Shown one piece after another: positions 13,071 to 64,000 of a stretch of 64,000 nucleotides of DNA. Position numbers and translations under genes: made by a program. Source of the DNA: Heterocephalus glaber (taxonomy: Eukaryota; Chordata; Mammalia; Rodentia; Bathyergidae). Location: positions 3,882,529 to 3,946,528 of the forward strand of contig NW_004624865.1 of the NCBI RefSeq assembly GCF_000247695.1. Direction: 5' to 3'. The first letter of the stretch is position 1. Each line of letters opens with the position of its first letter. Under the pieces are notes generated by a model. The model saw only the letters and a program-made list of their open reading frames with translations, ran no database searches and had not been told where the DNA came from.

Positions 13071-13118
<48 letters not shown>

Positions 13119-13345
13119 NNNNNNNNNNNNNNNNNNNNNNNNNNNNNNNNNNNNNNNNNNNNNNNNNNNNNNNNNNNNNNNNNNNNNNNNNNNNNNNNNN
13201 NNNNNNNNNNNNNNNNNNAGAGAGAGAGAGAGAGAGAGAGAGAAGGAAATGAAGAAGGAGGAAGAGGAGGGGAAAGAAGGGGAGGAGGAAGAGGAGGGGA
13301 GGAGAGGAAAGGGAAGGACAGGAGAAGAGGAAGAAGAGAGAATAC
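13070..13345. repeat. (GA)n microsatellite and purine tract with assembly gap
   Basis: Perfect (GA)n flanks a run of exactly 100 N at 13119-13218. A purine-only GGA/GAA-rich stretch follows to 13345. The true repeat length is unknown, and translations across the Ns are meaningless. Confidence 0.98.
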
Positions 13346-17813: not shown

Positions 17814-18165
17814 TGTATCAGTTTTCTATCACTGACACAACATACCTGAGATAAATAAATTTTAAGGAGTAAAGTTTATTTGGGTTCATAGTTTTAGACA
17901 TTTCAGTCCACAGGTGGTTGGCTCCACTGCTTTGGGGCCTGTGGTGAGAGAACATCATGACGGCAGCAGAGTGTAGCAAAGCTGCTCATTTCATGGTGAC
18001 AAGTTTGCAGAGAGAGAAGGTACCAGGTTCCAATATCCTCTTCAAGGCCCAGCCTCCAATGACCTGACTTCCTCCCACTAGGCCACACCTCCTAGAGATT
18101 CCACTTCCTCCCAACAACATCACAGCCTTGTGACCAAGGCTTCAACACAAGGCCTCCACAACAAC
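17814..18165 (-). mobile_element. MaLR-type LTR
   Basis: Plus strand TGTATCAGTTTTCTATCACT, then ACATACCTGAGATAAATAAA, CAGTCCACAGGTGGTTGGCT and GCCACACCTCCTAGAGATTC is the reverse complement of a rodent MT/ORR1-like MaLR LTR. No internal coding region is attached. Confidence 0.85.
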
Positions 18166-19985
18166 AGAATGCTCAGAAGAAGGCAAGTGCAGGTTCTTTG
18201 TTGGCAGAGAAGGTGACTGATCAGAAATGGAGGGGGGATGTGCTCAGGGAGTCAGATAGCGTTACTTGGGCTTAACATTTTAGGATGAATAACTTTAGCC
18301 AGAAGTGAACTAGAGGGAACAACCTCTAGAAAACAGGAGCCACGGCAGTACAAAATATACTACATGCTGTTGATTTTGAGTGTCCATGATTCCAGATACC
18401 TGCTCAGACAACCACGATGACCCCTGGTGTCCCTTCTGGCTCGGCCTCAGAGTCTCGTGTGGCCTTGTCTTTGACGAGAGTCTCAGAGGAGCCTCATGGA
18501 TGGCTGCCGCCCTCCAACCTAAGGTCTAAACTAGATTCACATTGGCTATAGGGCCCATTCCTTCACACCTCCCTGTGGAGCCGGCCAGGGCATTGCCCTC
18601 ACAGACGTGACATACAAGGATGGGGTCTTCCTCCCCTCATAACTATGTCCCTTTCCCTCTTCTTTCTCTCTAAATCCAATATCCATCCTGTCAGAACCTC
18701 CTACCAGACCCTGACCGGAGGTGAGTGACTGCTGGAGATGCCCCAAGGTAGTCCTCAGTGAGTCACCCTGTGTGACGCCCCCCCGTGATGGCATCTGTGA
18801 CATAGCTGACACGACACTATATGACTCCTCCTGTACAAGCTGGAGAGAGTGAAACAGCTGTTTTCCAGCTCCCATAAACAGGGACACACGGCAGGGAACT
18901 GAGGTGGCCTCCAGGATATGCAGCCTCCATTCTCCAGCCCATAGGAAGCTGATGTTCTTAGTCACACAGCTGAAAGAAAATCGTCTGTCCCTACCCGAGG
19001 GAGAGTAGAAAGGGTCTTTTCTAGCTGCCAGTCCAAATGAGAGTCCAGTGTAATTAGTGCCTCGGTTGCAAGCTTAAGAAAAGCTGAGCAGAACATGGAG
19101 CTAGGGTTTCCTGATGAGCATACAGCGTGAGCTAATAAATGTGTCGTTTAAGGCCACTAAAGCTGTTGTCCTGTGTAGCGCAGCAACAGTAAATGAATCC
19201 AGCACCCGGCCTTATCTCATGACACCACCCACCCGGAGCCCTAAAGGAATGAAGACCTCGGGGGGAAGGAAGTTCTGTCCCACTTGCACCTCTCTTCTCC
19301 GCAGAGTGACCAAGCTGTTCTCCCACTCATGTTTACATCATCTTGCTCTCCTTGCATCGTGGTGGACAGGGAGCACCGGGAGTGGTTAGACATTTCCTAT
19401 ACAAGAACAGAGGAAAAAACCTATGGGAAGAAGCATAAAACTGTGTTGGTGCACTAGGACAAAAAGCAAAGCTGACACAAGAAAGAGGTGAGGGCCATGC
19501 AAAGGGCAGCAGACAGGCTGAAGAGCAGGCAGTGGTTTGCCCCGGGGGAGCAGCTGTGCAGTAGCTTTCCAAACCGACCCCTCCACCCGCTGGAGCACAG
19601 GGTCCTTTTCCATCCAGAGCAGTCAGATGTGAGAAAAGAGGCAGCAAAGTGGGAAGCAGGCTCAGATCTCCCAGGCTTCTGTCCACAGGTGAATCAAGAA
19701 GTTGGCCCCACCCGTGGAGCGGCAGGCTCCCCCGTCTGCACACCCATGGGGCTTGCAAGGGCTTTCTTTCCCGCTGGGGTTTGTGCGTTGCCTATAAACC
19801 TTTGGCTCTGTGGCCTGGTCTCCTTCAGGACAGAGAACGTAGAGTAGCAGCCTGTGACCGACCACACAGCACAGACACGACAGGATCCAGAAAAGGGTTC
19901 AGGATTCTGATACCAAGGTCCCCTCTTTCTCCTCTAGCATAATAGTTTTCACCCCTGGGAGCTTTGGGGGAAAAAAACCCTTCCA
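18166..19985. other. Non-repetitive, moderately GC-rich sequence
   Basis: This is the longest stretch in which I recognise no transposon. Open frames of 119-141 codons occur on both strands (for example 18546-18965 minus, 19333-19758 minus, 19488-19847 plus) and overlap each other. None shows a domain or convincing splice-site pair. It could include exons or regulatory DNA, but I cannot support one. Confidence 0.35.
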
Positions 19986-30009: not shown

Positions 30010-30832
30010 TGTTTCAAAGCTGTCCTGGGGTCAAGAATTGAAAGGCTGGAAATACATTTCCACAGCTCATGTCTGGTCCACGCGTGAGATCACTTCCTCC
30101 CAGGGATATTCCCATGATCTCTTTCCAGACGGTAGAAGCGTCCCGGCCCTACTATGCCTCCCACACCCAATCCAAGTGGCTCCACTTGGTCCTCCAGAAT
30201 AGGTGCTAGGGTCCTTGTCACCCCACCACGCAGTCTCCAGATCTCAGCTCATGCTCAGGGACCCTCGACACTGACCTGACCTTGATCAAACACCAGTATT
30301 TCTGAGCTCAATCTCTTCCCTCACAAACTGAGGGATTCAATGTGGTGACTTTACCTTTTACTGAAACATGAGGATTTATCTTAGAAATCAGAAGCCAAGA
30401 TAAGAGAAAATATAGGTGCAACCAGTGCTCTTGTCACTGTCGGTACATCTGAACATATATGTTTTAGATGTCTTAGTCACTTTCTCATCACTGAGGTGCA
30501 ATACCCGACATCTACAACTTAAAAGAGAGGCTAATTTTGGCTCATGGTTTTAGCCCATGGTCAGCTGGCTCCAAGGCGGGAACATAGAGGAAGGGTCTGG
30601 CCGAGGAGAGCAGCTCATCTCATGGCAGGAGGGAAACAGAGAAAGGGAGGATCTGGGGAGGCAGACAAAGCCTTCCAGGTCACCAGTTCACTGACATTCC
30701 CTCCAGCCAGGCCCCACCTCCTATTGGTAACAGCACATTTAGGTCTAACTATAGTAACCCTTGACACAATCCAAAGGTCCATCTCTGAGCACATGAGCCT
30801 TCCAGGGGACATTCTAGACCTCAACCATAACA
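30010..30832 (-). mobile_element. MaLR copy A: LTR plus internal-side sequence
   Basis: On the minus strand an LTR (30832 down to 30469, TGT...ACA ends) is followed by about 450 bp that recur after the LTR of copy B at 55.1 kb, so the extra sequence is probably MaLR internal or linked DNA. It contains a 287-bp core (30073-30359) nearly identical to the other copy. The plus-strand frame starting at 30069 is cut by TAG at 30207-30209. No viral protein is recognisable. Confidence 0.75.
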
Positions 30833-31127
30833 CACCTGTAAGCGGAACAGAAAGCTAACTATTTCCACCTTCCTTTCTGACCAGCAGATCTGTGAGGAAG
30901 CACTTCTCTCTATCCAGAGACACACGCACCACTGAGCTGTGGCATCAGCAGCAAAAAGTGAACCACCTTGGGGGGTACTGTGACCTTGATATCACATCTA
31001 GAGTTGACTCCGTGGTCTGGTGATCTATGAACTAGGAAGACCAGAAGTATGTCCTCCAAATCCACATCTAAGACACAGGGGTGTAGCCGGGCTAGACAGA
31101 GCAAAAAAGGAACTCCCACATAGAAAA
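30833..31127. other. Unassigned sequence
   Basis: No gene or recognisable repeat. Confidence 0.4.
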
Positions 31128-34869: not shown

Positions 34870-35655
34870 GGCCTACAGCTTAATCTCTTACCATCTTGGT
34901 CCGTTCAAGGTACCTCAGAGTGAGTAATGTATCAACAATCAAAATGGAAATGCATTGCTCACCATCCAAAAGAAGGGAGTCCAAGGTCAAGGCCAAGATG
35001 GTGGAAGACTATGAAGACTTGCTGTCTGCTCCAAAGATGGAGCCTCTCTGGTGAGACCTCCAACAGCAGAAGGCAACAGTCAAACAATCTTCCTAAAGCA
35101 CTTTTATAAGAGCACTAATCCTATTCACGAAGATGGGACCCTCACAACTTAACTACTCCACAAGACAACGCTTCTTAAATATATTGCATTTGCTACTGTC
35201 TTAGTTCCTTTTCTCTCATTGCTGGGACAAAATACTCAACTCCCAACATTAAAGAAGAAGAGGTTTATTTAGCTCACAATTTGTAGAGGTTTCAGTTCAT
35301 AATCTGCTGGCTCTGAAGTAGGATGGCACGGCAGACAGGCATCACAGAGGAGAAACAATTCATGGTGGGCAGAAGGTAACAAAGCAAGCAAGGAGCAAAA
35401 TAAGTCTCTTTTTGTCTCTTATACTTTATACAGGTTACCAGAATTAGAGTCACACCAAACCAATCAGTGGACTGATTTAGTAATCACCCACCCTTAATCC
35501 TAGCATTGCACCATGAATCAATCACACACTCTAGATTCAGCAACCTCTGAAGAAGCCCCATCTATGACTGCATGAGTCTTTAGACACAAGCCGTAACAGC
35601 TATTAAGGTTCTGTATGAATTTTGGAGGCACACAGACATTCACACCACTGAATTG
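34870..35655 (-). mobile_element. MST/MLT1-type MaLR LTR, split by a nested LTR
   Basis: The left part (AAGGGAGTCCAAGGTCAAGG, then TATAAGAGCACTAATCCTAT) and the right part after 35603 (TGTATGAATTTTGGAGGCAC, CAGACATTC) together give one antisense MaLR LTR. The LTR at 35197-35598 interrupts it. Confidence 0.75.
35197..35598 (-). mobile_element. MaLR LTR nested in an older MaLR LTR
   Basis: Runs from TGTCTTAGTTCC to AGCCGTAACA with the 5-bp flanks GCTAC (35192-35196) and GCTAT (35599-35603), a 4/5 match to the target duplication expected for ERVL-type integration. This gives exact ends for a 402-bp solo LTR. Confidence 0.88.
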
Positions 35656-39804: not shown

Positions 39805-40163
39805 GAACATGTTGGTCATGTTATTATTTACATCTACCTGAAGTGTCCTCCAAAAGCCTCATATGTTTGGAAGGTGACTGGACTATGGGGTGGTGAGTTC
39901 ATGGGGCCTGGTGGGAGGTGGTCATGGGGGTGGCCTGGAAGGGTGCATTCCCGTCCCCAGCTCCTCCCTTCTCTCTCTGCTTCCTGGCCACCATGGAGCA
40001 AGCAGCTTCCCTCCGCCAGGCCCTTCTGCCATTCCATTTCTGCCTTGGAAACACCCGACCATGGACTGAATCTCTTGAAAACTATGAGCCAAATTAAATC
40101 ACCCCTCCTTGAAGTTATAGGGATCAGATATTTTGTCCCAGCCAGGACAAAGTGACTAATATA
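39805..40163 (+). mobile_element. MaLR-type LTR
   Basis: AAGTGTCCTCCAAAAGCCTC, GTGGGAGGTGGTCATGGGGG, a CT-rich stretch, CACCATGGAGCAAGCAGCTT, CATGGACTGAATCTCTTGAA, GAGCCAAATTAAATCACCCC and ATATTTTGTCCCAGCCAGGA follow rodent MT/ORR1-like LTR order, ending near GACTAATATA. Confidence 0.87.
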
Positions 40164-50079: not shown

Positions 50080-50480
50080 TGTATTAGTCAGCTTTCTACT
50101 GCTGGGACAAAACACCCAATACACACAATGTAAAAGAGAAAAGGTTTATTTGGGTTCATTGTTTCGAGCGTCCAGTCCACAGTTAGCTTCCCTAAGACAG
50201 AAACATGACAGAGCAGCATGATGGAGGAAAGCTACTCAATTCTGGCACCTGTGAAACAGAGTAGAGGAAGAGTCAGAGAGGAAACAAACAGGGACCAGAT
50301 ATAGTCCTTCAGGTCATGCCCCATGACTGACTCAGACACACCCAGAAGTGTGCTTTCCTAATCCCCCAGGCATCTCTCAAGTCAACCAAGTAGACAATCA
50401 AGAGTAAGCCTCACAAAGTGTTACCAGACTTGCTCTCTATAAAACAATTTCAAAGTGACTGTTTGCAGGCATTGTTTACA
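50080..50480 (-). mobile_element. MaLR-type LTR
   Basis: Plus-strand TGTATTAGTCAGCTTTCTAC, CAAAACACCCAATACACACA, AGGTTTATTTGGGTTCATTG and CGTCCAGTCCACAGTTAGCT is an antisense rodent MaLR LTR. The right end is uncertain. Confidence 0.85.
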
Positions 50481-55084: not shown

Positions 55085-55920
55085 GCTGTGTCTCAAATCA
55101 CAAGTCAGCTGGGCTTGGATCTGGAGAACTGAAAAGCTGGAACTAGGATTCCACAGTTCATGGCTGGTCCACGCGTGAGATCATTTCCTCCCAGGGATAT
55201 TTCCATGATCTCTTTCCAGACGGTAGAAGCGTCCCGGCCCTGCTATGCCTCCCACACCCAATCCAAGTGGCTCCACTTGGTCCTCCAGAATAGGTGCCAG
55301 GGTCCTTGTCACCCCACCATGCAGTCTCCAGATCTCAGCTCATGCTCAGGGACCCTCGACACTGACCTGACCTTGATCAAACACCAGTATTTCTGAGCTC
55401 AATCTCTTCCCTCACAAACTGAGGGATTCAATGTGGTGACTTTACCTTTTTGCTGAATCATGAGGATTTATTTTAGGAGTCAAGAGCTAAGCTAAGAGAA
55501 AATAAGGTACAATTGGTCCTCGGGTCACCGTTGGTACACGTGAATGTGTTGCTTTCAATGTCTTAGTCACTTTCTCATCACTGGGGTCCAATACCTGACA
55601 CCCACAAGTTAAAGAAGGAGAAGTTTATGTTGGCTCATGGTTACAGTCCCAGGTCAGTTCGCTCCAAGGCAGAAACAGGATGGCAGACAGTCCTGGAGAA
55701 TAAAAAGGTAACCACATCACGGCAGCCTGGCAAAGAGAAAGGGGAGGAGCCAGGGAGGAAGGTACACCCTTTAGGGTTTCAACTCCAATGACCCTCCCCT
55801 AACCAGGCCCCATCTCCTAACAGGAAGTCAGCGATATCGCGCCATAATCCATCCCCTTCCACAAGCCCCACCTACGAGCACATCAGGCCTTCCCGAGACT
55901 TCTTGGTCTACATCAGAACA
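55085..55920 (-). mobile_element. MaLR copy B: LTR plus internal-side sequence
   Basis: On the minus strand an LTR (55920 to 55559, TG...CA-type ends) precedes about 450 bp homologous to copy A at 30 kb. The 287-bp core 55164-55450 differs from copy A at five positions only. A plus-strand frame at 55160-55396 (78 codons) lies in the core. All five differences change its codons, and one is the stop in copy A, so protein constraint is unlikely. No viral protein is recognisable. Confidence 0.75.
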
Positions 55921-56729
55921 GATGCTTTGCACAACGTTTTTGAAAGTGAAAAGCTGAGATATATATACAAGAAAGGATAATGAATCTAATGCTCTCCATC
56001 TTCTTTCAATATTTGAAAGCAAATCCTAGCCATAATGTTCTGTCACCTATACGTTACTCCGTATATATATCTAAGACATAAGATTTTTAAGAAACAATCA
56101 CAATACTATCAGGAAACCTAAAAATTCTCTGAATACTATCAGTTCTCCAATCTTGCCCAACTATCCTCTTAGGGTATTTATTTTTAATGACATATTGAAT
56201 GGAAATCTGCTTTAACAAGAAAGTGTGATTTGCATTGAAACCAGGTCTACATCTCACCAGAACACTCAGTTAGTTTATCAATTTGGAGTATAAATAACAA
56301 AGCTGGGGAACGTACAATCTTTCAAAGTACCAGGGCTAAAAAACAAAGACCCCAGAGTTTCAAATTAATCACTGTGATTCCAGAGTAGTCCGTTTTTAAA
56401 AATGCTCGTAGCTATGTTTTTATATATTTATTGTATTTATTTACTTGGGTCTTGATTTGTTTATTTCTTTTCAAGAAAGTAAACAGTACTAGAACACATA
56501 GAACAAACATCAATAGAAATAACCGATACTAATCAGAAGGAGATCATTCCAAGAGGCCTGCTTGGTGCTAAAATTCTGTGACTTTAACAGCAATAGGGAC
56601 TGTGAAGGAAAAGATCCCACCCAAATTAGGGAAAAGAGCTTTCTACATTAGAGAATGCTTTATAAAACAAGGGCAGTCAGCTGGCTCAACTAAAAGCTGA
56701 CTTCAGCTGGTAGAAGTATTTTTTTCTTA
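55921..56729. other. Unassigned AT-rich sequence
   Basis: No gene or confident repeat recognised. Confidence 0.4.
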
Positions 56730-57039: not shown

Positions 57040-57320
57040 ATGCACAATATACTCAATACTCAACATGCACAACTTAAAGGAGGAGAGGTTTAATTTGGCT
57101 CACAGTTTCAGGGTATTCAGTCCATGGTCAGCTGGTTCTAAAGCATAAGCAAGAAGGCAAAAAGAGGTGGTGGAGCAAAGATATTTAGTTCACGGTGGAG
57201 GGAAGGAGAACAGAGGAACAGCTCCTGAGAGGAAAGAGTGGGAGACCTGATACAGTTCCCAAGGTTATGGCTCCATAACCCAGCCAGACACAGACACTAC
57301 TGGATGGGTTATGGAGGGGT
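57040..57320 (-). mobile_element. MaLR-type LTR
   Basis: Plus-strand CACAACTTAAAGGAGGAGAG, GTTTAATTTGGCTCACAGTT and CAGTCCATGGTCAGCTGGTT mark an antisense rodent MaLR LTR. Its first 40 bp contain a local duplication of ACTCAATA/TGCACAA words. Confidence 0.78.
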
Positions 57321-58907
57321 AACTTAATGGATACACATACACAGACATAGGCACACACAATCAGCATTTGAGTCTGTGGCAGTCTATTATAAAGCAAAAC
57401 TATTTTGCCTTCAAATAGATATAATGACCAATTCTTTACTTTTATTCATTAGTGATTATTCATCATTTGGGGGACAACTTTTGTATCCAACATGCCATGA
57501 TTGACCTTGACTCTGGGGAAGGTGCTGAGCTGGAAGCCAGTAATATGGAGAGCACTAAGTCCCATCCCATGACTTCCTGTCCTGTATCTCTAGTGAGATA
57601 CCCCAAAAACGGCTCACTAATATCATGTGCCACTGCTATATTACAACTGTCAGAAGTGGTGGGGAGAATGGGAAGCTACTTCTTCCCATCCAGGGAGAGA
57701 AAGAGTCCAGGAAACTGACAGATAGACACGTTCTCCAGGGCAACGAAAGGGGCAATCTTAAATGTAATGATGCTATATGTATAGGCGTAGCATCAATGAT
57801 ACAAAGTTTGCTTCAGAAGGTTTGTTGCTGCCTTTCAGCAGATTTGTTTCTGTGACTACACAGTTCCCATCATCTTCATGAGATTGTGTGGTTGTTTGCT
57901 AGATCTACTTCACTTCCAATAAGTACAAATTATATCTTAAAATGATTTAACTTAATGCTCTTTTGCTTCAGGTCATTATGCTCACAGATGTTAAATGCTT
58001 ATTTCTTTGAAAAGATAAGGATACTAACAAATATTATGGGATGATTTATATGATGATGGATTTCATTAGAACCAAGGTACAACGTTCCCCCGTGCAGATG
58101 CTCTGTCTTTACATTTTAGCACACAGTAAAGGATCCTCACAGTGGAACTAACTGTGCAGAATGGCAGAGCTAAATGGATTTCTTTAGACATAACCTCTGG
58201 CCTCCTCCTCCTCCAGATGAGACAATCCTTGAAGCACCCAGGAAAGCTGGGAATAGTTGCAGACTGTCCAGGCTTACAGTTTCAAAGCCATCCTCCCCTG
58301 GTGCTTTCTAAGTAAACATGCTAAGTCAGACACGAGACCAATGCCTCCCTGTCCACCCTCCCTGGAGAAAGCAAATTGAACAGTATCCTCCTCCTGGAAT
58401 GCCACATGTATGCATTTGAAACCAGTTGTTTTCAGAACCTTCAGGATGCCAAACATGTGCATGTAACCAATGGAGCTTCAGTGTTAAGCATTCCAATCAA
58501 CTGGATTTCAGTTTCTTTTCCCCCCTGGACCTTTTAACCAAATATGAACCTGAAAGCTTACTGAGAACCCCTGATTCTTCATCTGAGGTCATCTCTGTTG
58601 CTTTTCTAGACATCTTTTGCAATTCCCGCACACTCCATTTTGAAATAGGAAAGAAAATTTAGTCCCCTTATTGTACTAGTGGTTTGGTGAATATTTGAAC
58701 ATCCTGGGTGTAAATTTTCACTCTTCAAGAAATCAGACACCTTGAGCAAGAGAAATACTTGTTCATCCCTTTTAGAAAGACCACACTAAGTGTTTACGAC
58801 ATGGAGTTTGGAAATTTCCCCTTCTATCCACCAATTCCATCTAACCTGTTTTTATGCTTCCACTACTTACATATTAAATAGCTAAATCTATTTCTCTAGC
58901 GCTTTTT
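57321..58907. other. Unassigned sequence
   Basis: No transposon or exon recognised over about 1.6 kb. Short frames (57452-57718, 58426-58662) have no domain. Confidence 0.35.
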
Positions 58908-60897: not shown

Positions 60898-60904
60898 GTA
60901 AATA

Positions 60905-61250
60905 ATGTAAAGAAAGGAGAGTTTTATTTTGGCTCATAGTTTCAGTCCGTGGTCTTGGCACCGTGATTTTGATGATGAAGAGCATCATGGTGCCATGTGT
61001 GGTCGACGACGGTGCTTCTTCCATGGAGGCTGGGAAGCAAAGGAAGAGAGGCTGGGTCTGGAGAGCCCACCGCGTTTCCTCTCAACTAAGAAAGGCTCCA
61101 GCACCTCCCGAGGGTGCCACAGCTGGCCTGGCAACCAAGGCTTCATTCAGCCAATGGCATTTGGGGAGCTCAAGGTCGAAGCTCCCACATCAAGCAAGGT
61201 CAGCTCCGCCGCTAGAGGTCAGCACTGTGCGCCACACAGTGCAGACCCCA
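60905..61250 (-). mobile_element. Probable MaLR-type LTR, decayed
   Basis: Plus-strand GTAAAGAAAGGAGAGTTTTA, TTTTGGCTCATAGTTTCAGT and CCGTGGTCTTGGCACC match the start of antisense rodent MaLR LTRs. The remainder is diverged and relatively CpG-rich. Confidence 0.55.
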
Positions 61251-61531
61251 TTCCTCTCATGTGCTTTCACCTTGGTTTGAGTTTAAATTCTGTGACCTGT
61301 TCCTGAAGGCTACCATCCATAAGCATCAGCTGGGTTACTGTCTCGTTTTTCCTCTCACTCCATTACTTTCTAAATCTGTGCTGTGACATTTGAAATTGAA
61401 GGTAATGGCTTCCTTAAAAGAGACATGATGTAATACATTAAAAAAAAAAAAAAAAAAACAGACTGGAAGTGAGACCAGCCTCACTTTGTCTAAAACAGAC
61501 TTGCTGTGTGACCTCAAGAAAAGCTATGAAA
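61251..61531. other. Unassigned sequence with poly-A run
   Basis: An A18-type run lies at about 61440-61458, just before the L1 region. It may be the tail of another retroposon. Confidence 0.45.
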
Positions 61532-61688
61532 CAGCTCCCAGCACAGAGGAGGCCTCCAGGTCACAGTGCCATGGCTCTCAGCCCAGAGGAGGCTTCTGGG
61601 TCAGCATGCCACAGCTCCCAGCCCAGAGGAGGCTTACAGGTAGGCATACCACAGCTCTCAGCACAGAGGAGGTGAGCTGCAGGGGTGC
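61532..61688 (+). repeat. Four tandem ~40-bp units in the L1 leader
   Basis: The unit CACAGCTCCCAGCACAGAGG plus about 20 more bases repeats at 61532, 61571, 61610 and 61650 with moderate divergence. The unit length is not a multiple of three. Position just upstream of ORF1 recalls the repeated monomers or length-variable region of some rodent L1 5' ends. Confidence 0.88.
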
Positions 61689-61713
61689 CAGCAGCACCCC
61701 CCACCCCATCGAA

Positions 61714-62683
61714 ATGAGAAGACACATAAACAAGCCTCAGAACCAGACTTCCAGAACACCTACAGCAACCCCAAAGGGAACCAGATGGAACACTCTGATA
61801 CTCAACCACCTGGACTCCCTGAACTGGCAACGAAAGAGTACCTGGAAAAAATGAAAGCAGAAATAATTTCTCACATAACAGCAGAGATTGTGCCCATAGT
61901 GCAAGACATGATTAATATATCTAGAGAGGACACAGATAAAAAATAAAATGGAAGAGCTGAGGAACATGATGGAATCCCAACATAGGAAACAAATTGAATC
62001 CATAAAACAGATGCAAACAGATTTCCAGGAGATTAAAAACTCCATTGAAAGTCTACACAGCAGAATGAGCCAATGTGAGGACAGAATTTCAGATATAGAA
62101 GATAAGATTGCAATTAGTGACCAGGAAAAGAAAAATTGCTTCAAAATAGTAAGAGAACATGAGAAATCAATCCAGCAGCTGCTAGATGATGCAAAGAAGA
62201 ATAACATAAGACTGATTGGAGTCAATGAAGAAACAGGAGAGAGTGCAGATGACATACAAAAATCCAGTTCACAGAAGTGATGGCAGAAAACTTACCAAGG
62301 AGGGGCAAAGAACTTCATATACAGGTAAGTGAGGCATATAGGACTCCAGCTAGCCTTGATCAAAAAAAATCTACACATAAGCATATAATTATTAAGATTC
62401 CACAAACAGAACAGAATAACAAAATTCTACAAACAGAGAAAAGAAACAAATCACATACAAAGGAAAACCCATCAGAATCACAGTAGACTTCTCAGTGCAA
62501 ACCCTCAAGGCAAGAAGAGCTTGGAGTGATGTATTTCAAGCCCTAAAAGAAAACAACCTCCAACCCAGATTGAGGTACCTTGCAAAATTCTCTTTCAAAA
62601 TTGATGGAGAAATAAGATGCTTTCATGACAAAGAGCACCTTAGAAACTTCATGAATATCAAACCAGCAATCCAAAAATTTTAG
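61714..62683 (+). pseudogene. L1 ORF1 protein relic
   Basis: ORF1p is the RNA-binding chaperone of L1: coiled-coil trimerisation domain, RRM, and C-terminal domain. Here a charged coiled-coil stretch lies in one frame at 61948-62160, followed by the RRM start (RLIGVNEE near 62208-62235). The RRM end lies in another frame from 62277 (HIIIKIPQ near 62380). The C-terminal domain lies in a third, with ARRAWSDVFQALKENNLQPR from about 62510 and a stop at 62681-62683. Frame changes fall near 61945, 62278 and 62430-62450. The true start codon is not settled: an ATG at 61714 exists but in the wrong frame. Confidence 0.92.
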
Positions 62684-62802
62684 ACCAAATCCAGGAAAAA
62701 GACAACAAGGATGACAACCCCAGGAAGCTGAGCAGAATGAATCCACCAGGCACAACAAGAAATTAAAAGCAAACAGGGAGAATCAAACCAAAAGAAAAAG
62801 TC

Positions 62803-64000
62803 ATGACAATGATAACTCAATACATACCAGTTATAATCATCAATGTTAATGGTCTCAACTCACCAATCAAAAGAAATAGACTGCCAGAATGGGTCAATAA
62901 GAAAGATCCAAAAATATGCTGCCTACAAGAAACACACTTAATTCAAAAAGAAACTCATAGACTGAAAGTTAAAGGGTAGAAAACAATACTCCATGAAATA
63001 GGAACCCGAAAAAAAGCAGGAGTAGCTCTCCTCTTTGCACACCAAGTGGATTTCAAACCCACAATGCTTAAGAGAGACAAAGAAGGACACTATATCCTTG
63101 CAAAGGAAACAATCCTGGAGGAAGAGATGACAATCATAAATATCTATGCACCAAACACTAGTGCACCCAATTATATAAAACAAATACTAACAGACATGAA
63201 AAACCATATAATCACTAATACAATAGAAGTGGGGGACCTTAATACCCCATTGTCACAAATACATAGATCAACTAGACAAAAAACAAGCAACGAAATACTA
63301 GAACTCAAGCAAACTCTTGAACAAATGAACTTAACAGATGTTTACCGAGTGTTTTACCCCACAAAATCAGAATACACATTCTTTTCAGCTGCACACAGGT
63401 CGTTCTGCAAAACAGACCACATACTCACTCATAGAATACATTGTAATAAGTGCAAAGTAATTGAAGTTATCCCCTGTATATTATCAGACCATAGTGTGGT
63501 GAAATTCGACATCACCAGCAAAACAAACTGCAAAAACTTCATAAACACATGGAAATTGAACAAGACACTTCTGAATAACCAATAAGTCACAGAGGAAATT
63601 AAAGAAGAAGTCAGACAGTTCCTTCAATTCAATGACAATGACAATACAACATATCAGAATCTAAGGGACACAATGAAAGCACTCTTATGAGGGAAATTCA
63701 TACCAGTAAATACTCATATTAGGAAAACAGAGTGAGCCCAATTAAACCACCTGATGCTGAACCACAAGATGCTAAAAACAAAGAGAAAGATAAACCAAAA
63801 GCTCATACAAGAGAGGAAATTATAAAGATCAGGGCAGAAATCAATGCAATGGAGACTAAGAAAACAATACCAAAAATCAATGAAGCCAAGAATTTGTTCT
63901 TCAAAAGAATAAACGAAATTGACAAACTCTTAGCCAACCTTATCAGAAAAAGGAAAGAAAAGGTCCAAATCCATGCAATTAGGAATGAAAAGGGTGAAAT
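62803..64000 (+). pseudogene. L1 ORF2 relic, endonuclease domain and beyond (partial)
   Basis: ORF2 encodes the L1 endonuclease and reverse transcriptase. From ATG at 62803 the frame shows the APE-like endonuclease: INVNGLN (Asn), CCLQETHL (Glu), INIYAPN, GDLNTPLS (Asp/Asn) and SDHS (catalytic His near 63490). Thus catalytic residues are visible, but the frame has stops at 62977-62979, 63583-63585, 63688-63690 and 63733-63735. The match to the region after the endonuclease then continues in another frame from about 63816 (REEIIKIRAEIN). The reverse transcriptase lies outside the window. Confidence 0.95.

What the first reader, a model, noticed from the sequence alone, without database searches (positions are those of the whole stretch)
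30073..30359. 287-bp core ~98% identical between two MaLR copies whose flanks are much more diverged
Copy A (30073-30359) and copy B (55164-55450) are in the same orientation, 25 kb apart. By direct base-by-base comparison they differ at five sites, all transitions, with no indels. The homologous sequence immediately to the right, including the LTR, is only about 80% identical by eye and has indels; the left flank is also clearly diverged. Six CpGs survive in both cores, unusual for an old repeat. The sharp edges suggest recent gene conversion of the core, strong local constraint, or a younger sequence carried in both. No known MaLR feature that I can name predicts this.
Basis: partly seen in the sequence, partly recalled or inferred. 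Interest (0 to 1): 0.75.

Follow-up and report, generated by a model that had tools for sequence, protein, structure and literature searches.

The report
Gene-conversion patch between old repeats
Two old, decayed copies of a retrovirus-like repeat share one nearly identical 287-letter stretch, most likely because DNA repair copied that stretch from one repeat onto the other fairly recently, a clean example of a known process.

Summary
Core A (30073-30359) and core B (55164-55450) differ at 5 of 287 sites, all transitions. Aligned flanks differ at 8/39 sites (left), 26/107 (right internal) and 24/122 (near LTR); the rest of the LTR is worse. A two-rate scan gains 67 log-likelihood units against at most 11 in 200 permutations. 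Among 51 repeat pairs of the window this pair scores 39 and the next 9.9.

The element looks like an old MaLR on the minus strand (LTR 30469-30832; name recalled, no repeat library). Eight LTR copies in the window are 49-65% alike, so A and B look like separate old insertions. The core has stops in all six frames and no clear RNA fold (copy A).

Best reading: ectopic gene conversion long after insertion, perhaps B to A (weak). Selection on both cores is not excluded: the genome search did not complete in 12 tries, and no orthologues were available.

The parts
30073..30359 (-). Core, copy A (strand given in the sense of the LTR)
   Evidence: 5 of 287 differences from copy B; best low-divergence block starts at 30073 and ends at 30359 (BLAST alignment) or 30379 (MAFFT alignment)
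55164..55450 (-). Core, copy B
30034..30072 (-). Diverged homologous left flank of copy A (partner 55125-55163)
   Evidence: 8 of 39 mismatches; no detectable similarity beyond it
30360..30468 (-). Diverged internal stretch between core A and its LTR (partner about 55451-55558)
   Evidence: 26 of 107 mismatches
30469..30832 (-). MaLR-like LTR of copy A, TG...CA ends on the minus strand
   Evidence: 66.5% identical to the LTR of B by BLAST
55559..55922 (-). MaLR-like LTR of copy B, outer end not clearly preserved
   Evidence: BLAST extent; alignment

Best explanation
Two separate, old insertions of one MaLR-like LTR element lie 25 kb apart in the same orientation. Long after insertion, a non-allelic (ectopic) gene conversion, probably repair of a break in one copy with the other as template, overwrote about 290 bp of one copy's internal sequence. 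Later mutation added the five transitions. Shown: the sharp identity block, the diverged flanks, the absence of coding or clear RNA signals, the decayed look of the core. Inferred: that conversion made the block, its age, and its direction (B to A, weak).
For: Core 5/287 mismatches against 58/268 in left flank, right internal and near LTR together (Fisher p 8e-15). Two-rate scan gain 67.3 vs at most 11.1 in 200 permutations; highest of 51 repeat pairs, 39.3 vs 9.9. A and B LTRs are 65% identical, hardly closer than to a third copy (64% each), so the copies are old and separate. Flank CpGs decayed independently (0 of 16 sites shared) while 6 of 7 core CpGs are shared. Core CpG density equals that of flank B (6/287 vs 11/534), and TpG+CpA is in excess (1.26 and 1.35; window 1.20): the core was already decayed DNA when homogenised. 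About 290 bp lies within the 14-450 bp range of maximum tracts reported for human LTR conversion, and closeness in cis is stated to favour it (PMC4921805, passages). No coding or clear RNA signal.
Against: PMC3924818 (passages): in rodent cells the rate falls dramatically near 80% identity and efficient processing needs roughly 200 bp; the same text says conversion below 80% does occur at a low rate. The longest identical run outside the core is 26 bp, so conversion must have begun inside the core. The family's ancestral CpG content is unknown, so the decay argument is indirect. No orthologue, no third core copy and no donor tree were available. The direction rests on A's core vs flank CpG density (7/287 vs 5/545), p 0.12.
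Confidence: 0.72

Rival explanations
1. Purifying selection: both cores were co-opted, for example as a regulatory element, and have stayed nearly unchanged since insertion while the flanks drifted.
For: The low-divergence block is confined to one stretch, and six CpGs are kept in both copies. Without orthologues the A-B comparison alone cannot separate this from conversion.
Against: It needs the same 287 bp frozen twice with sharp edges. Stops in all six frames, fold z-scores -0.65 and -1.83 for copy A, no Rfam match at gathering thresholds. The core bears the CpG-decay signature, and CpG density no higher than flank B.
Confidence: 0.12
2. Mosaic family: A and B are insertions of different LTR subfamilies that shared one core through recombination between elements, so the core identity is family-wide and the flank differences are subfamily differences.
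For: No other core copy could be examined, so a family-wide pattern was not tested.
Against: A 1.7% core distance would make both insertions young, but no partner LTR closer than the other copies was found, A's right flank has CpG o/e 0.18, like the whole window at 0.21, and the LTRs are no closer to each other than a scattered old set (49-65%).
Confidence: 0.1
3. Assembly error: one core was filled with sequence from the other copy.
For: The window has one 100-N gap, at 13119-13218.
Against: The gap is about 17 kb from A and 42 kb from B. A misfilled core should be identical, not carry five dispersed transitions. Reads were not available.
Confidence: 0.03

Closest known systems
Ectopic gene conversion among human LTR elements (PMC4921805, passages read)
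   Same: Short tract copied between dispersed LTR-element copies; maximum tracts 14-450 bp; closeness in cis favours it
   Different: There the LTRs are described as highly similar and the tracts are seen as clusters of SNPs among people; here the flanks are 76-80% identical, the tract is internal sequence, and donor and population data are missing
Interlocus gene conversion between duplicated sequences (PMC3924818, passages read)
   Same: A high-identity block bounded by diverged sequence on one chromosome
   Different: Usual partners are above 80% identity with about 200 bp of homology; outside the core the longest identical run here is 26 bp
ERVL-MaLR elements (PMC10735291, passages read)
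   Same: LTR with TG...CA ends next to internal sequence; resemblance of the LTR is recalled, not tested
   Different: No gag-like frame recognised in the internal stretch; subfamily not determined; the paper treats primate members

Membership tests
Ectopic gene conversion tract | High-identity block with sharp edges inside diverged homologous sequence | tested here: met
Ectopic gene conversion tract | Tract length within the known range | tested here: met
   About 290 bp; published maximum tracts 14-450 bp (PMC4921805, passages)
Ectopic gene conversion tract | Partners similar enough, with a sufficient stretch of uninterrupted homology | tested here: inconclusive
   Flanks 76-80%, longest identical run outside the core 26 bp; identity of the core before the event is unknown
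Ectopic gene conversion tract | A and B closer to each other than to their orthologues, in the core only | not testable with these tools
   No rodent genome reachable: the genome search unanswered 12 times
MaLR element | LTR with TG...CA ends | tested here: met
   Copy A 30832 to 30469 on the minus strand; the outer end of LTR B is not clear
MaLR element | Match to a MaLR consensus | not testable with these tools
   No repeat library; naming is recalled
MaLR element | Gag-like internal frame | tested here: inconclusive
   Only 435 bp of internal sequence compared; stops in all frames; four frame pieces without a Pfam match at cut-off
Co-opted, constrained element | Low divergence between species in the core only | not testable with these tools
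   No orthologues available

The most novel reading that the evidence does not exclude
Both cores are co-opted copies of one MaLR leader segment, held almost unchanged for the age of the insertions, possibly helped by recurrent conversion, so that an old retroelement's 5' internal region acts as a pair of regulatory elements 25 kb apart.
Probability: 0.1. Interest if true: 0.6.

Novelty: new member of a known kind. Interest (0 to 1): 0.27.

Why it matters
If conversion is right, old dispersed repeats with flanks only 76-80% identical can still exchange sequence over 25 kb. That is near or below the identity at which mammalian conversion is said to be strongly reduced (PMC3924818, passages), and it would mislead dating of repeats by pairwise identity. 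A genome-wide search for such blocks in old repeat pairs would measure how often it happens.

Tried and rejected
Coding constraint: not supported. Stops in all six frames of both copies; four frame pieces gave one sub-threshold Pfam match (E 0.095, 13.3 bits, cut-off 22.6); one protein search with an 87-aa frame piece of copy B found no candidate. RNA structure: z -0.65 and -1.83 for copy A only; no Rfam match at gathering thresholds in the window.

CpG anomaly: rejected as evidence of youth or constraint. Duplication of a larger block: the 600 bp left of the homology score 19 against shuffles of mean 20.8 and maximum 28; beyond the LTRs the alignment shows none by eye.

Further copies elsewhere: three exact words in IMG/VR gave 0, 0 and 2 hits. 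The two hits (L001, L002) match only over the 20-base word, other matches being at E 0.66 or worse, and have CpG o/e 0.83; taken as chance. One genome-contig scan gave 0; phage records gave no match. None of these collections is a rodent collection.

Full report
Observation. Copies A (30073-30359) and B (55164-55450) differ at 5 of 287 positions, all transitions. A global alignment of the element (30034-30865 vs 55125-55945) gives mismatches of 8/39 in the left flank, 5/287 in the core, 26/107 in the right internal stretch, 24/122 in the near part of the LTR and 106/243 in the far part. A two-rate scan finds the best low-divergence block at 30073-30379 (7/307 inside, 162/491 outside), gain 67.3; 200 permutations of the columns reached at most 11.1. 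That scan includes the poorly aligned far LTR; the shorter BLAST alignment (682 columns) still gives 39.3 with a block of exactly 287 columns. As a local control the same scan ran on 51 BLAST repeat pairs of the window, A-B included. Pairs under 90 or over 5000 columns and mirrored duplicates were dropped. A-B was first, the next best 9.9, a pair that runs into a GA microsatellite.

What the element is. On the minus strand the sequence from 30832 to 30469 begins with TG and ends with CA and reads like a MaLR-type LTR (recalled; no repeat library). In that sense the core lies about 110-395 bp downstream of the LTR. Homology of A and B ends 39 bp beyond the core; the next 600 bp score like shuffles. 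The window holds six further pieces similar to the LTR, near 17818, 35197, 39893-40163, 50080, 57054 and 60902; the ones near 17818 and 60902 are the weakest (best E 5e-4 and 5e-6). In one alignment the 28 pairs among the eight pieces are 49-65% identical; A-B is the highest at 65%, while A and B are each 64% identical to the piece at 39893-40163. So A and B look like separate, old insertions. No nearby piece stands out as a partner LTR: the nearest on the internal side is 50080-50288 for B, 61% identical, and about 12 kb away for A. The internal sequence matched nothing else in the window except 18290-18359 (E 0.016), which overlaps only the last 14 bases of the core. For the four of six other pieces whose internal-side end was found, the neighbouring 600 bp had no match better than E 1.0.

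CpGs. The six shared CpGs are real, but 28% of 1121 overlapping GC-matched windows here have 7 or more. Density in core B (6/287) equals that in flank B (11/534); core A (7/287) exceeds flank A (5/545) without significance (p 0.12). Of 16 flank CpG sites none is shared; of 7 core sites 6 are (Fisher p 7e-5). The core also has a TpG+CpA excess of 1.26 (A) and 1.35 (B), window 1.20. Together this suggests an already decayed piece of DNA with one recent common ancestor, not a stretch that resisted decay. It is not proof, because the family's ancestral composition is unknown.

Function tests. Stops in all six frames of both copies. Of four frame pieces one gave a Pfam match far below its cut-off, and the one protein search found no candidate. 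Fold z-scores for copy A are -0.65 and -1.83; on the minus strand 9 of 200 shuffles fold as well. No Rfam match at gathering thresholds. Nothing here positively supports constraint.

Mechanism. The best reading is non-allelic gene conversion between two same-orientation copies 25 kb apart. The core distance (K2P 0.018; 95% interval of raw divergence 0.6-4.0%) is about one fifteenth of the near-flank distance (0.26), so on a constant clock the event is that much younger than the copies' common ancestor. Published LTR conversion tracts (maximum 14-450 bp) and the stated effect of closeness in cis fit (PMC4921805, passages). MaLRs are cited as linked to recombination hotspots (PMC10735291, passage); that was not tested here. 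The tension: in rodent cells conversion is reported to fall dramatically near 80% identity and to need roughly 200 bp, although it can occur below 80% (PMC3924818, passages), while the longest identical run outside the core is 26 bp. Conversion must then have begun inside the core, possibly more than once.

What could not be done. The search of the window's own genome was asked 12 times and never answered. The other scans gave no related copy. Constraint and a mosaic family therefore stay open at low probability. In the titles and abstract starts listed by my five paper searches I saw no description of a conserved or conversion-prone block in MaLR internal sequence; I read only passages of three papers.

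Noticed in passing
61531-63998: A 40-bp tandem repeat (3.5 copies) followed by frames with a coiled-coil-like stretch (61912-62277) and an endonuclease-like stretch (62980-63582, Exo_endo_phos_2, 20.1 bits, below its cut-off of 27.4). Looks like a LINE-1 copy running off the window (name recalled).
   Followed up: partly
13073-13243: The only N run (13119-13218, 100 N) sits inside a GA microsatellite, as scaffold gaps of fixed size often do.
   Followed up: no
17818-18094, 35197-35398, 39893-40163, 50080-50288, 57054-57403, 60902-61102: Six more pieces similar to the LTR of A and B, about 49-64% identical to them and to each other.
   Followed up: partly
18290-18359: Weak match (64%, E 0.016) to A's internal sequence 30346-30414, about 200 bp from the LTR piece at 17818-18094 but on its far side; perhaps chance.
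   Followed up: no
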